Of a stretch of 64,000 nt of DNA, positions 43,029 through 48,498 are shown piece by piece. The stretch comes from Noviherbaspirillum massiliense JC206. Its GTDB lineage: Bacteria > Pseudomonadota > Gammaproteobacteria > Burkholderiales > Burkholderiaceae_D. A program made the translations under genes and the position numbers. Each line of letters starts with the position of its first letter. Within the stretch, counting starts at the first letter, position 1. The notes beneath the pieces are model-generated. The model ran no database searches. It saw nothing but the letters and a program-made list of their open reading frames with translations, and was not told the DNA's origin. Location: positions 739,940-803,939 of the forward strand of contig NZ_HE978634.1 of assembly GCF_000312045.1 (NCBI RefSeq), given 5' to 3'.

Positions 43029-43982
43029 TCAGCCTTGAACGTCGCCCGGCTTCCACATCCCCGTTGAAACATACCGCTCGCCGGTATCGCTCAATACGGT
43101 CACGATGCTGCGGTACCTCCCGCTTGCCGCCAGCCTGATGGCCCCATGCACGAAAGCGCCCGAGGAAGGCCCGACGAACAGGCCGTGCAAGGCCAGGCGC
43201 CGCGACATGGCGAGGGCTTCGTCAAGCGTGACGCCGATGCGCTCGTCGATCAGCGACTGATCGAGCAGGGCGGGGACGATGTCGCCGGGATGGCCGAGCG
43301 GCTTCAGGCCTTCGATGCCGGGAAAAGTTTCCGGAATCACGGCCGCCACATGCAGTTTGGTGCCACGCTCGCGCAGGCGCCGCGCAACGCCGGTGAGCGT
43401 GCCGCCGGTCCCCACGCCGGCAACCAGCGCGTCGGGTGCGGCTCCCGTGTATGACGCCAGCTGCTCCAGCATCTCGCTCGCCGTTTCTTCATAGTGAACC
43501 TGCCAGTTGTCGGCATTGCCGTACTGGTCGCAGTACCAGTAGCGGTCCGGCTGCTCGGCCGCGAGGCGCTGTGTGTGGCGAATCGCGAAGTCGTAGCCTT
43601 CCACCGGATCGGTGAGTATGAGTTCGGCACCATGCGAACGGATGCGCTGCAGGCGTTCGGCGCTCGCATTGCCCGGCACCACCAGTGTCACCGGCACACC
43701 CAGCGCCGCACCCAGCATGGCGTAGGAAATGCCGGCATTGCCGGACGAGGAATCGAGCAACCGGCGTCCGCCCGCGAATCGTCCCGCCGCAATGGCGCGG
43801 GTGAGCATGCGTGCTACCGGCCGGTCCTTGATCGAGCCGCCCGGATTCACGCTTTCCAGTTTCGCAAACAGCCTGGTCCCGGACGCGACCTCACGCACCA
43901 GCGGGATCTCGACCAGTGGCGTGTGACCGATGGCGGCAAGCAGCGCCGGTGCGCCGGAGGAAATGGCGGCTTCGTTCTTCAT
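43029..43982 (-). CDS. cysM: Cysteine synthase (O-acetyl- or O-phosphoserine sulfhydrylase, CysM-like)
   Basis: The 317-residue PLP enzyme has K52 in NPGGSIKDRP as the Schiff-base lysine, SSSGNAGIS for the substrate loop and GVGTGGTLTG for the PLP phosphate. The start overlaps the rhodanese-MoeB stop by ATGA. In the mycobacterial CysO pathway, CysM takes sulfur from thiocarboxylated CysO. Its operon partners here (CysO-like, MoeB-like, JAMM) point to that use. Confidence 0.93.
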   Translation of the reverse strand: MKNEAAISSGAPALLAAIGHTPLVEIPLVREVASGTRLFAKLESVNPGGSIKDRPVARMLTRAIAAGRFAGGRRLLDSSSGNAGISYAMLGAALGVPVTLVVPGNASAERLQRIRSHGAELILTDPVEGYDFAIRHTQRLAAEQPDRYWYCDQYGNADNWQVHYEETASEMLEQLASYTGAAPDALVAGVGTGGTLTGVARRLRERGTKLHVAAVIPETFPGIEGLKPLGHPGDIVPALLDQSLIDERIGVTLDEALAMSRRLALHGLFVGPSSGAFVHGAIRLAASGRYRSIVTVLSDTGERYVSTGMWKPGDVQG

Positions 43983-45151
43983 GCCGCCGTCCGCGCGCAG
44001 AATTGTTCATAGTCCACGTATGCAATTTCCTGTGCCGCGTCGCCGCAATAAGGGCAGGCGGGATCGCGCAGCAGCGCCAGTTCGGCAAAGCGTGTCTTGA
44101 GCGCATCGTAGGTCAGCAGTCGGCCCACCAGCGGATCGCCGATATCGAGCAGGAGCTTGATGGTTTCGATCGCTTCCAGCAGGCCGATCACGCCCGGCAG
44201 CACTCCCAGCACGCCGGCATCGGCGCAGGAGGGCGCCATCTCGGGCGGCGGCGGCTCCGGATACAGGCAGCGATAGCACGGGCCGCGGCGCTTCGGATAG
44301 CGCGGCCAGAACACCGTCGCCTGGCCCTCGAAGCGATAGACCGAGCCGTGCACGTTCGGCTTGCCGAGCTTGACGCAGGCATCGTTGACCAGATAACGCG
44401 TGGGGAAATTGTCGGAGCCGTCGACCACCACGTCGAAACCGGAAAAGATTTCTTCCACGTTGCCGCTGTGCAGGCGCGTTTCGAAACCCTGCACCTTGAT
44501 GGAAGGATTGAGCGCTTCCAGTGCCTGCCGTGCCGAAGCCACCTTGCTCATGCCGATGCGCGCATCCGCATGCAGGATCTGGCGCTGCAGGTTGCTGCGG
44601 TCCACCACGTCATGGTCGACGATGCCGAGCGTGCCGATGCCGGCAGCGGCAAGATAGAAAGCAGCGGGAGAGCCGAGCCCGCCGGCGCCGATCAGCAGCA
44701 CCTTGCTGTTGATCAGCTTCATTTGCCCGGCTTCGCCCACTTCCGGCATCATCAGGTGGCGCGCATAGCGTTCGCGCGCATGCGGGTCGAGCCGTTGCGG
44801 CGTTTCGAAGGGCAAGCCTTCGTTCTTCCAGCGCGAGAAGCCGCCGGCCATCGAATACAGCTGGCGATAGCCGAGCTTCTGCAATTCCTCGGCGGCAAAC
44901 AGCGAGCGCACGCCGCTATTACACATCGTCACAACCGGTTGGTCGTGGTCCGGCACGCTGTCCTCGACGCGCAATTCCAGGAAGCCGCGTCCGAGCCTAT
45001 GCGCGCCGACCGGGCTGCCCTGGGCAATCTCATCCGCTTCGCGCACGTCGACCAGCGCCGCGCCCCTGGCTTGCAGGGCCATTGCTTCTGCCGGCGTCAC
45101 CTCGGGAATGGCCGCCTTCAGTTCAGCCAGGCGGCGGTCCTTGCCTTTCAT
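43979..45151 (-). CDS. Rhodanese-MoeB/ThiF fusion, sulfur-carrier activating enzyme
   Basis: The 390-residue protein has an N-terminal rhodanese with the active Cys in TMCNSGVRS (about residue 82), then the E1-like domain: GAGGLGSPAA ATP site, IVDHDVVDRSNLQRQ, and zinc CxxC pairs CYRC and CPYC. It would adenylate and thiolate the C-terminal Gly of the carrier encoded just upstream. Rhodanese is at the N-terminus, not the usual C-terminus of MoeZ. Its ribosome site AGGAGG lies inside the carrier gene, overlapping it by 29 bases. Confidence 0.92.
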   Translation of the reverse strand: MKGKDRRLAELKAAIPEVTPAEAMALQARGAALVDVREADEIAQGSPVGAHRLGRGFLELRVEDSVPDHDQPVVTMCNSGVRSLFAAEELQKLGYRQLYSMAGGFSRWKNEGLPFETPQRLDPHARERYARHLMMPEVGEAGQMKLINSKVLLIGAGGLGSPAAFYLAAAGIGTLGIVDHDVVDRSNLQRQILHADARIGMSKVASARQALEALNPSIKVQGFETRLHSGNVEEIFSGFDVVVDGSDNFPTRYLVNDACVKLGKPNVHGSVYRFEGQATVFWPRYPKRRGPCYRCLYPEPPPPEMAPSCADAGVLGVLPGVIGLLEAIETIKLLLDIGDPLVGRLLTYDALKTRFAELALLRDPACPYCGDAAQEIAYVDYEQFCARTAA

Positions 45152-45434
45152 GATCGATTCCTCCTGCGACGGCGGGAATGATCGAAACGATATCCCCGTC
45201 GGCCAACGGGGTTTGCATGCCGTCCACCGCGCGGATGTTCTGGCTGCCCAGATAGATATTGACGAACTGGCGCAGCTCGCCGCTCTCATTCAGTATGCGC
45301 GGCAGCAGGCCTTCGTGCTGCGTGCCGAGCGCATGCAGGGCATCCGCGATGCTGGACGCGTCGACACGAACTTCGTCCGCGCCTTGCGTGTAGGAACGCA
45401 ATGGGGTTGGGATGCGTATCGTCACCGTGCTCAC
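45123..45434 (-). CDS. MoaD/CysO-like ubiquitin-fold sulfur carrier with C-terminal extension
   Basis: The 103-residue product has a beta-grasp pattern (TVTIRIPTPLRSYTQG, DGDIVSIIPAVAGG) and ends with Gly91-Gly92 followed by an 11-residue tail, IDHERQGPPPG. Sulfur carriers normally end at GG, so proteolytic trimming is needed; the overlapping JAMM peptidase is the natural candidate. GTG start overlaps the JAMM stop (GTGA). The tail overlaps the rhodanese-MoeB start, so it may partly reflect gene compression. Confidence 0.85.
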   Translation of the reverse strand: MSTVTIRIPTPLRSYTQGADEVRVDASSIADALHALGTQHEGLLPRILNESGELRQFVNIYLGSQNIRAVDGMQTPLADGDIVSIIPAVAGGIDHERQGPPPG

Positions 45435-45850
45435 GATTGAATCACCTCCTCGTCGAACACTTGTGCCTTATTCAGGCGCCATGAACGCAGGTCGCGCACG
45501 CCGCCGTCCGTCACCTCGAGGATGACGTAGGACCATTCCGGCCACGCGGCAAGCCGGTCGGTTTCGGAAGGGCGGGCCGGATGATCGGGATGCGTATGCC
45601 ACACGCCCAGTACTTCCAGTCCCTGCGCACGCGCGGCATTGTCGGCGTCCAGAAGGTGTTGCGGGTCCAGTTCGTAACGGTCGCGGGCGCGTTCCAGGTT
45701 AAGGTTGCGAGCCTGCGTCACGCGCCGGACCACATGGTCCGCTGCTGCACGTTCGCCAATCAGGAGGCCGCAGCTTTCATGGGGGTAAGCCGACTCTGCC
45801 CACGATGCAAGCGTGGTCCGGCAATCGCCTGGAAGATACAGCGTCGGCAT
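45431..45850 (-). CDS. JAMM/Mov34 metallopeptidase (Mec+-like)
   Basis: The 139-residue protein has the JAMM motif complete: E25 in HESCGLL, then H85-x-H87-x7-S95-x2-D98 in GVWHTHPDHPARPSETD. Bacterial Mec+ cleaves cysteine from CysO. It is the first gene of the operon and its stop overlaps the carrier's start. A possible extra role is trimming the carrier's C-terminal tail. Confidence 0.93.
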   Translation of the reverse strand: MPTLYLPGDCRTTLASWAESAYPHESCGLLIGERAAADHVVRRVTQARNLNLERARDRYELDPQHLLDADNAARAQGLEVLGVWHTHPDHPARPSETDRLAAWPEWSYVILEVTDGGVRDLRSWRLNKAQVFDEEVIQS

Positions 45851-46196: not shown

Positions 46197-48074
46197 TTAA
46201 CCACCGACACTGAAAGTTCTGCCTTCGTATCCACCCTGAAAGACATTGATGCCTTTCCCTGTCCACCGTATCGTTTCCCGGTTGAGTGCATTGTATTCAG
46301 GGCTATCGAGTTTATAAGCGTAGCTGCTCCCGGTCCTGATAACACGGGCTGTACCGGCTCCGACAACATCGGATGGATAATATCCGGAGACCATGACTGC
46401 CGAGAGCTTTGCGCCAGGCTCGGAAATCAGTGACCAGCGCACAGGCTCATAAGAGCTGAGCACCAGAACCAGGGGTTTCGCCGAGCGGCGGATGCGGACT
46501 TCGACATGCCCCATTCGGCGTCCCGCGGCCATGGATTGAGCACCGCTTGATCCTTGGTAAACCCCAACGGCTTCCACTTGCGCTTCGCGAGCAAGGTCGG
46601 CGATCGGACCGGATGCAGGTCCATACGAAAGGGGCGCAGACGGGGCAGCGGCTGGCATGCCTCGAAAGCTCCCGTTGTACGCATCGGCAGCCCGTGCCTC
46701 TTCTTGCGCCTTGAGCTTGGCCAGCTGGCGCTCCAGGTTGAAAGCAGCCAGTAATTCGTCCAGAGGCTTGGCGTCGCCCGCTTGTACCATGTCTCCGAAC
46801 CACATCCCGTTGTATTCCCTGCGCATATAGCCGGTCCGCCCTGCCAGTGGCGCGAGGATGCCCGCATTGCCTTCCCTGGTTTCAACGGGAGACAGTGTGG
46901 ATTTCTCTATGTCGAATACCCACGGTTTGGTACCAGTCCCACCCGCCTGGTAAGAGTCGACCAGGAGCGTAGTTTCGCCGAGCTTGCCATATTGATTCAC
47001 TAAAAATTCGGCAGTAGGCCACAAAGCTTCGTTGCCGGATTCCAGGTCGACTGCCATGAAGTCTCGCGAGGAAATGAAGACAATCGCTTTGCCCTCTCGC
47101 ATCAGGATGGGCGGCGAAGAAGTCACGCCTTGCCCCTGCTTGATGCTGAATTCCTTGATGGCTGTGCCTTTGATTCCTTCCGGTGCACGCTCATGTTCGA
47201 CGAGCGAAAACGCCCTTTGCGATCCAAGCAGGACGCGCGATGGCGAACTGCTTACGGACAGCCCCCAGGTCTGGCGACGAAGTTCAATCGGGTGAGGTTC
47301 GATTTTCCCCTTCTGGAAATCGACATATACGAGCGAGCCATTCTTCTGCTCATTCGCCAGAGCGGCCGAAATCTCTGGCAGCCATGCGAGAAATTGAGTA
47401 ATTTCCTTGGCATTCCAGAGTGTTGCGCCGGTTTCCGTATCGATGAAGGCGACTCGGCTGTTACTGATCTGGATTGCCGCCACGCGCCCGTTCGGTGACA
47501 GAAGCACATGATGCGAGGCTTCCGGCAGCGAAGGCAGGCTGGCGATCTTCTTGCCGCCGGGGATTTCGATTGAAGCAAACTCGCCGCTCGTACCGCGCAG
47601 CACGGCAACACCAGCATTCGCAGCAGCAGCGCCCGAGTAGATATTCGCAATGCTTCGTACCAGAGCAGGAGAGCCGAGCGGCTGCTTCGGACGCAGGGGA
47701 GGTTGCGCAATAAGGAGGGCAACCTGCCGGATGCCCAGGAATTGCAGCAATTGGCCGTCCTGTGCGCTCAGGCATTCACGACTAAGAAGGCCTTTGACCT
47801 TCGCAACAGTATCGAAACGTCCTATCGATATTCCCTGGCTGCAGGTTAATGCACGCAACTGGAGTCGCGAGGCATACTGCTCTTCAAAGGATTTCAACGC
47901 GGCTTCGTTGTCTTGGAGACGCGCCCGCAGGCTTTCCTCTGCAATCCTAACCTCTGCATTTGGCGGGAATGCCTTGTTCACTTTTTCGTGCGGCGGCAGG
48001 AAGATCTCCTGTAATTGCGTGCAGCCCGAAACTGAAACGCATAACACCAGGACGACGAATGCGGCACGAAACAT
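46197..48074 (-). CDS. Large lipoprotein with beta-propeller-like central region
   Basis: GGGAG lies six bases before the start at 48074. A lipoprotein signal ends VSVSGC (residue 18). The 625-residue protein has a helical segment (30-80), a region around 160-430 with WD/PQQ-like strand periodicity (VAVLRGTSGEFASIEIPGG; GRVAAIQISNSRVAFIDTETG), a proline/alanine linker, and a C-terminal beta domain. It lies alone on the minus strand. Function unknown. Confidence 0.7.
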   Translation of the reverse strand: MFRAAFVVLVLCVSVSGCTQLQEIFLPPHEKVNKAFPPNAEVRIAEESLRARLQDNEAALKSFEEQYASRLQLRALTCSQGISIGRFDTVAKVKGLLSRECLSAQDGQLLQFLGIRQVALLIAQPPLRPKQPLGSPALVRSIANIYSGAAAANAGVAVLRGTSGEFASIEIPGGKKIASLPSLPEASHHVLLSPNGRVAAIQISNSRVAFIDTETGATLWNAKEITQFLAWLPEISAALANEQKNGSLVYVDFQKGKIEPHPIELRRQTWGLSVSSSPSRVLLGSQRAFSLVEHERAPEGIKGTAIKEFSIKQGQGVTSSPPILMREGKAIVFISSRDFMAVDLESGNEALWPTAEFLVNQYGKLGETTLLVDSYQAGGTGTKPWVFDIEKSTLSPVETREGNAGILAPLAGRTGYMRREYNGMWFGDMVQAGDAKPLDELLAAFNLERQLAKLKAQEEARAADAYNGSFRGMPAAAPSAPLSYGPASGPIADLAREAQVEAVGVYQGSSGAQSMAAGRRMGHVEVRIRRSAKPLVLVLSSYEPVRWSLISEPGAKLSAVMVSGYYPSDVVGAGTARVIRTGSSYAYKLDSPEYNALNRETIRWTGKGINVFQGGYEGRTFSVGG

Positions 48075-48498
48075 GGACTCTCCCAAAGTTTGCGGTGTGG
48101 ATGAATAAGCCTTGCGGTGGTCCAAGTCGGCGGGATCAAAGGATTTAAAGAAATTGTTTTACGGGCTGGCGTCTTGCCCCTTTCGGGCCCTATGGAGAAA
48201 TGCCGGTACCTAGATTTAACTGGCGGTAATCTTAACGAATTTTCCATAATGAAAACAGTTATTCGGGCACCGGGACCAGAAGGGCGTCTCGCCCGGAAGA
48301 CAGGTCGTGCACCAAACCTGCATATTCACAGGCGAATCAGGATCGGGCCTGCGGGGTTGGTTTTCTGATAAGCCGGGCTATGTTGAAAGAAGGAGCGCAG
48401 TGCGGTCCGGCTTACTGGCCGGAATTCCTCATGCTGCCGCTTCGTGCCCGCCCGGCGCGCCGTGGCGGCAATTCAACAGGTTACGCGAGGAGACAACC
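48075..48498. other. Divergent intergenic region (424 bp) before the glutamine synthetase
   Basis: The region separates the lipoprotein and glnA genes. A GAGGAG ribosome site precedes glnA. No convincing sigma-54 site (GG-N10-GC) was found. A low-GC run at 48200-48270 may hold promoters. Confidence 0.4.

What the first reader, a model, noticed from the sequence alone, without database searches (positions are those of the whole stretch)
45123..45434. CysO-like carrier with an 11-residue tail after Gly-Gly
Sulfur carriers must end in a free Gly-Gly. This one has IDHERQGPPPG beyond Gly92. The adjacent JAMM peptidase has the complete E, H-x-H, S, D set, so it could remove the tail as well as release cysteine. 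This parallels carriers whose C-terminal extension is trimmed by a JAMM peptidase in thiocarboxylate pathways, but the tail here is longer.
Basis: partly seen in the sequence, partly recalled or inferred. Interest (0 to 1): 0.75.

Follow-up and report, generated by a model that had tools for sequence, protein, structure and literature searches.

The report
Capped sulfur carrier overlapping its activator
This bacterial sulfur-carrier protein is made with eleven extra residues that hide its working end because its gene runs on into the next gene; the metal protease encoded beside it most likely trims them off, a known kind of maturation that in related bacteria seems to go as far as fusing the carrier to its activating enzyme.

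Summary
In detail: the carrier at 45123-45434(-) ends PAVAGG-IDHERQGPPPG, next to a JAMM protease with all five motif residues. Its closest solved relatives are CysO proteins; the operon is type 4c of Iyer et al. 2006. The tail is read-through: the Gly-Gly codons GGAGGA double as a likely ribosome-binding site of moeB, whose ATG lies 7 nt on, and the carrier's stop lies inside moeB. Over these 11 codons the cap keeps 3 residues and MoeB 8 in a same-genus relative; caps are no more alike than shuffled. Among carriers followed within 250 nt by an E1, 24 of 24 with a JAMM in the locus are capped or fused to the E1; without one, 4 of 6 are bare. Capped carriers lie in JAMM-positive genomes in 69 of 70 cases, bare ones in 44 of 87. 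New are long arbitrary caps made by gene overlap, and in-frame carrier-rhodanese-E1 fusions at 10 loci. Trimming is inferred, not shown.

The parts
45431..45850 (-). JAMM/Prok-JAB metalloprotease (139 aa); its stop overlaps the carrier's GTG start (GTGA)
   Evidence: Prok-JAB E 4.9e-26; E25, H85, H87, S95, D98 invariant in 11 aligned sequences (window's included); junction TCGTGAGC.
45123..45434 (-). Ubiquitin-like sulfur carrier, CysO-like, 103 aa with cap
   Evidence: A3 profile hits CysO chains 4n6e_B and 3dwg_C first; AlphaFold core mostly over 90 pLDDT, best Foldseek hits are CysO.
45159..45164 (-). GGAGGA: codons of Gly91-Gly92 and, at the same time, likely ribosome-binding site of moeB
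   Evidence: Sequence GCAGGAGGAATCGATC-ATG. Its use as ribosome-binding site is inferred.
45126..45158 (-). 11-residue cap IDHERQGPPPG after Gly92
   Evidence: pLDDT below 50 at residues 91-99.
43979..45151 (-). N-terminal rhodanese + ThiF/MoeB activating enzyme (E1), 390 aa; overlaps the carrier gene by 29 nt; its stop overlaps the next ATG (ATGA)
   Evidence: (NF006444/PRK08762, 619 bits, cut-off 449).
43029..43982 (-). Divergent cysteine-synthase-like PLP enzyme (317 aa)
   Evidence: PALP, TIGR01136 267.7 bits under the cut-off 344; the genome has a separate cysteine synthase over the cut-off.

Best explanation
A CysO-type sulfur-transfer operon whose carrier is translated as a precursor. 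Shown by sequence: carrier and moeB overlap by 29 nt, so the carrier runs 11 residues past Gly-Gly before meeting a stop inside moeB. Inferred steps: (1) the flexible cap blocks adenylation of Gly92; (2) the operon's JAMM protease binds the ubiquitin-like core and cuts after Gly92 whatever follows; (3) MoeB adenylates the free glycine and its rhodanese domain supplies sulfur, giving a thiocarboxylate; (4) the cysteine synthase joins it to an activated serine; (5) the same JAMM releases cysteine, as Mec+ does for CysO. Because the JAMM trims whatever follows, the stop codon is free of selection: caps drift in length and sequence, genes overlap, and in relatives carrier and E1 are fused in frame and would have to be separated by the same cut.
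For: Domain ends at Gly92. JAMM motif complete. Carrier followed within 250 nt by an E1: 24 of 24 capped or fused with a JAMM in the locus; without one, 4 of 6 bare, p 5e-4. Of 157 carriers labelled by a linked JAMM or a genome search, capped ones are JAMM-positive in 69 of 70, bare ones in 44 of 87; counted by genome 47 of 48 and 43 of 86 (tallied). Caps are not conserved. In-frame carrier-rhodanese-E1 fusions at 10 loci, all with the JAMM gene directly upstream; in the one fused protein modelled, the Gly-Gly junction is the only inner stretch below pLDDT 50. Precedents: PtmS1, whose loss stops product formation; DRJAMM cuts MoaD-MoaE; Mec+ releases cysteine from CysO.
Against: No cleavage was observed or could be. 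A JAMM does not entail a cap: 7 of 33 JAMM-linked carriers end in bare Gly-Gly (none of the 7 is directly followed by the E1), and the M. tuberculosis CysO chain 3dwg_C ends where the profile ends, so the JAMM may serve only cysteine release in some. L211 is bare although its genome has Prok-JAB matches elsewhere. Among E1-linked carriers (within 1.5 kb), linkage alone does not predict a cap (26 of 33 against 27 of 32), because capped f247 carriers lack a linked JAMM. The tree-corrected pair test had only 4-6 usable pairs and shows nothing. One capped carrier lies in a genome without a Prok-JAB match (L061, a metagenome assembly). In the Streptomyces precedent, losing one capped carrier (PtmS2) did not stop product formation, which the authors put down to redundancy.
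Confidence: 0.82

Rival explanations
1. The cap is removed by general cell peptidases and the JAMM serves only to release cysteine from the carrier, as Mec+ does.
For: JAMM-linked bare carriers exist (7 of 33), so the JAMM has another job; the cap is predicted disordered and thus open to any peptidase.
Against: Capped carriers are almost confined to JAMM-positive genomes (69 of 70); carriers followed by E1 without a JAMM in the locus are mostly bare (4 of 6); fused forms need a precise cut after Gly-Gly.
Confidence: 0.1
2. The cap is a functional pro-segment, for example a lock that keeps the carrier inactive until the JAMM is charged with zinc or sulfur is needed.
For: Caps would block activation in principle; every carrier collected in JAMM-carrier-E1 order has a cap or a fusion (23 of 23).
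Against: Caps share no sequence beyond shuffled (p 0.23, 9 caps) and follow MoeB's frame (3 of 11 against 8 of 11 identical); lengths run from 2 to 28 or a whole enzyme. A lock by mere presence is not excluded.
Confidence: 0.12
3. The carrier is decaying or not used for sulfur transfer; it stays capped.
For: The operon's carrier is patchy (2 of 15 genomes of the genus), and the genome has another MoeB-type E1 and another cysteine synthase.
Against: Core 74% identical (68 of 92) to the same-genus relative with Gly-Gly kept, against 3 of 11 in the cap; JAMM, rhodanese and ThiF domains intact.
Confidence: 0.04

Closest known systems
CysO-CysM-Mec+-MoeZ cysteine pathway of Mycobacterium tuberculosis (PMC3227635, passages)
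   Same: CysO-like carrier (best PDB matches), JAMM, rhodanese-E1 and cysteine synthase, here in one operon.
   Different: CysO chain 3dwg_C ends at Gly-Gly; this carrier has an 11-residue cap; rhodanese is N-terminal to the E1 here, C-terminal in MoeZ.
Capped sulfur carriers PtmS2 (cap MV) and PtmS3 (cap C) with JAMM PtmS1 of Streptomyces; QbsD precedent (PMC6006322, passages; Godert 2007 not held, not read)
   Same: Residues after Gly-Gly and a JAMM, clustered with PtmS2, said to uncap.
   Different: Caps there 1-2 residues; here 11, formed by overlap with the E1 gene.
Operon type 4c of Iyer, Burroughs and Aravind 2006 (PMC1779556, passages)
   Same: ThiS/MoaD-like protein, JAB, rhodanese-E1, cysteine synthase; the authors also suggest that JAB may cut ThiS or MoaD off fusions.
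   Different: The passages seen mention neither caps nor carrier-rhodanese-E1 fusions; the ThiF fusions they name (Campylobacter) carry a Ub-like domain distinct from ThiS.
MoaD-MoaE fusions: DR2607 cut by DRJAMM (PMC8832034) and MoaX cut after Gly82 by an unidentified protease (PMC4326299), passages
   Same: Fused carrier released by cutting after Gly-Gly.
   Different: The partner there is MoaE, the other subunit of molybdopterin synthase; in relatives here it is the activating E1.
BilABCD (review PMC11354881, passages)
   Same: A JAMM exposes the reactive C-terminal glycine of a ubiquitin-like protein.
   Different: A conjugation system with an E2; no E2 is among the four genes identified in the operon here, but an E2 was not searched for in the genome.

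Membership tests
CysO-type sulfur carrier | ThiS/MoaD beta-grasp fold nearest to CysO | tested here: met
   Pfam ThiS; profile and Foldseek best hits 4n6e_B and 3dwg_C. NCBIfam matches (SAMP1, MoaD family) stay under their cut-offs.
CysO-type sulfur carrier | Gly-Gly at the end of the domain | tested here: met
   ThiS match ends at Gly92.
CysO-type sulfur carrier | Gly-Gly is the encoded C-terminus | tested here: not met
   11 residues follow. It would work like CysO only after trimming.
CysO-type sulfur carrier | Thiocarboxylate formed and cysteine released | not testable with these tools
   Needs biochemistry.
Capped sulfur carrier with JAMM | Residues after Gly-Gly and a linked JAMM gene | tested here: met
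Capped sulfur carrier with JAMM | JAMM removes the cap | not testable with these tools
   Only comparative support.
JAMM/Prok-JAB protease | E, H-x-H, S, D zinc motif | tested here: met
   E25, H85, H87, S95, D98 invariant in 11 aligned sequences.
Mec+ | Orthologue of Mec+ that hydrolyses CysO-cysteine | tested here: inconclusive
   Linkage to carrier and cysteine synthase fits; no sequence named Mec+ was compared; PDB relatives 2kcq, 2kks, 5lda.
Iyer 2006 operon type 4c | ThiS/MoaD-like, JAB, rhodanese-E1 and cysteine synthase genes together | tested here: met
   definition read.

The most novel reading that the evidence does not exclude
One JAMM serves as maturation protease for carrier-E1 precursors: carrier and activating enzyme are made together, by overlapping genes here and as a true polyprotein in relatives such as Aromatoleum diolicum, and separated after Gly-Gly. 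The same JAMM would thus cut three bonds: cap, carrier-E1 junction and carrier-cysteine. This would be a bacterial counterpart of ubiquitin-fusion precursors inside cysteine biosynthesis.
Probability: 0.45. Interest if true: 0.65.

Novelty: new variant of a known kind. Interest (0 to 1): 0.47.

Why it matters
Precursor processing of ubiquitin-like proteins by a JAMM protease is usually told as part of conjugation systems. Here a plain sulfur-transfer operon and its relatives show several stages side by side: bare carrier, cap of a few residues, overlap with the E1 gene, fusion with the E1. That suggests how ubiquitin-type precursors can arise: once a protease trims the end, the stop codon is released from selection. 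It also warns annotators: carriers with residues after Gly-Gly, and carrier-MoeB fusions, are probably real genes rather than frame errors when a JAMM is present.

Tried and rejected
Linkage of JAMM within 1.5 kb as sole predictor of caps: association overall (26 of 33 linked against 64 of 167 unlinked capped, p 3e-5), none among E1-linked carriers, because one group keeps its JAMM elsewhere; genome-wide presence was then used. The E-value cut of 1e-10 for a strong Prok-JAB was set after seeing the scores; with Pfam's own cut-off the result holds (47 of 48 against 51 of 86, p 1.5e-7). Among the genomes, largely Actinobacteria and Chloroflexi by their record titles, nearly all have a strong JAMM whether capped or bare (21 of 22 and 23 of 27), so they add little.

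Tree-corrected independent pairs: too few supported pairs, shows nothing. Fused forms as one clade: rejected (p-AU 0.004, at least 4 changes), but L212 is a long branch and the direction (fusion first or overlap first) is unresolved.

Rows dropped, not fetched or not labelled: searches gave about 30 loci each, best matches first, and searches added 40 chosen stretches, so many weaker or redundant matches were never read for their ends. 3 of 203 carriers whose match does not reach Gly-Gly were set aside. Of the 200 left, 43 had no JAMM label and were left out; among these are capped f247 carriers and two bare ones (L225, L226) of G746, a JAMM-positive genome. L091 was not held. One search was given 50 of the 80 loci: the 23 capped ones with no JAMM match beside the carrier and 27 bare ones chosen by me. 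The 23 JAMM-carrier-E1 rows were picked by hand; re-derived them from all loci then held. Start codons inside fused forms: none among the first 15 codons after Gly-Gly in L057, 20 in L230, 33 in L212; the other fused loci of this order have ATG, GTG or TTG codons sooner; internal initiation is not excluded for any of them. Specificity of the PLP enzyme (O-phosphoserine or other) was not tested.

Full report
Observation. The reported ORF is there as described: 45123-45434(-), 103 aa, ending AVAGG-IDHERQGPPPG. The ThiS domain ends at Gly92. The upstream neighbour is a Prok-JAB protein with E25, H85, H87, S95 and D98 invariant in 11 aligned sequences, its own included. Downstream come an N-terminal rhodanese plus ThiF/MoeB protein (NF006444, 619 bits) and a divergent cysteine synthase.

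Anatomy. All four genes overlap: JAMM and carrier by GTGA, carrier and moeB by 29 nt, moeB and the cysteine synthase by ATGA. The codons of Gly91-Gly92, GGAGGA, lie 7 nt before moeB's ATG and look like an excellent ribosome-binding site (inferred from sequence). The carrier is in another frame than moeB, so it reads through moeB's first codons until TGA, formed by moeB's Ala-Glu codons. The cap is therefore a by-product of overlap. A same-genus genome shows the same arrangement with cap VAHESERPADC; over these 11 codons the cap frame keeps 3 residues and the MoeB frame 8, while the carrier core keeps 68 of 92.

Setting. The genome has its own MoaD and ThiS, both ending in bare glycine, another full ThiF/MoeB-type E1 and a cysteine synthase above its curated cut-off. 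The operon's carrier is found in 2 of 15 genomes of the genus; a third match there is weak and belongs to another carrier group. In the family sample, 18 of 195 genomes had any match at E 0.001, 11 of them weak matches to that other group.

Relatives. I searched 195, 399, 369 and 398 genomes of family, order, class and phylum and took 80 loci from species-wide contigs. Only part of the matches was fetched (about 30 loci a search, plus 40 stretches). After removing identical copies, 200 carriers could be read to the Gly-Gly. Thirty carriers are followed within 250 nt by an E1. The 24 with a JAMM in the locus are all capped or fused (23 with the JAMM just upstream, L074 with it 1.8 kb downstream). 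Of 6 without, 4 are bare and 2, both in one Chloroflexi locus (L072), are not, but that genome has a JAMM elsewhere. Of the four bare ones, two lie in genomes without a strong Prok-JAB (L213, L214), one (L211) in a genome with Prok-JAB matches elsewhere, and one is a Rhizobium plasmid cluster whose genome was not searched (L239).

Genome-wide JAMM. Capped carriers are JAMM-positive in 69 of 70 cases, bare ones in 44 of 87; by genome 47 of 48 and 43 of 86. So a cap nearly always goes with a JAMM, but a JAMM does not entail a cap. The 7 JAMM-linked bare carriers all have other gene orders, with the JAMM between carrier and E1 or the carrier last. The rows are related to each other, and the tree-corrected test had no power, so p-values overstate the case.

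Fusions. At ten loci with the order JAMM, carrier, E1 the carrier is fused in frame to rhodanese-E1 (L023, L026, L027, L054, L057, L133, L134, L135, L230, L212), including the named isolate Aromatoleum diolicum (L057); a cysteine synthase was not found next to all of them (for example L054). Chloroflexi loci L072 and L074 have carrier-E1 fusions without rhodanese. In L212, L230 and L057 no start codon lies among the first 33, 20 and 15 codons after Gly-Gly; the others of this order have one sooner. A concatenated tree gives at least 4 changes between fused and separate and rejects a single fused clade; which state came first is open. In a predicted structure of the fused L054 protein (23 sequences in the alignment), Gly-Gly lies in the one inner stretch below pLDDT 50 (residues 89-93). 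The window's carrier is predicted with a firm core and a loose cap, and its nearest solved folds are CysO proteins.

Literature, passages only. Operon type 4c and the idea that JAB may cut fusions: PMC1779556. Capped carriers PtmS2 (MV) and PtmS3 (C), with loss of product when the JAMM gene is removed, though not when ptmS2 alone is removed: PMC6006322. DRJAMM cutting MoaD-MoaE: PMC8832034. MoaX cut after Gly82: PMC4326299. CysO, CysM, Mec+ and MoeZ: PMC3227635. Eight answered searches of this library listed no paper whose title or shown start of abstract reports a carrier-rhodanese-E1 fusion; most subscription papers are not held, so this is weak evidence of novelty.

Conclusion. This is a CysO-like carrier with a long cap, most likely removed by the adjacent JAMM. 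The class is known; the long overlap-made cap and the series up to carrier-E1 fusions are the new variant. Cleavage, thiocarboxylation and cysteine release are inferred.

Noticed in passing
L239 (Rhizobium leguminosarum plasmid NZ_CP030762.1, 75879-82282): YcaO-like gene, a 355-aa protein with a C-terminal ThiS domain ending in bare Gly-Gly, rhodanese-MoeB, methyltransferase and LanM in one stretch: a peptide-modification cluster with its own sulfur carrier; no JAMM match in the 6.4 kb fetched.
   Followed up: partly
L191-L210 (group f247 and kin): Carrier - cysteine synthase - E1 operons whose carriers mostly end in Gly-Gly plus one or two arbitrary residues (often C, K or R), with the JAMM gene elsewhere in the genome.
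   Followed up: partly
L072, L074 (Chloroflexi): Several ubiquitin-like carriers in one locus, one of them in each fused directly to a ThiF-type E1.
   Followed up: partly
L011-L021: A distinct bare-Gly-Gly carrier group followed by a gene that in L012 begins MNDRALIATRKGLFE; possible conserved pair of unknown role.
   Followed up: no
L055:5277-5300: The E1 frame shows ATA where its relatives have the ATG start; either an unusual start or an assembly error.
   Followed up: no
window 46197-48125 (-): 642-aa ORF with, by eye, a lipoprotein-signal-like stretch near its start and a weak PQQ/BamB repeat match under the curated cut-off.
   Followed up: no
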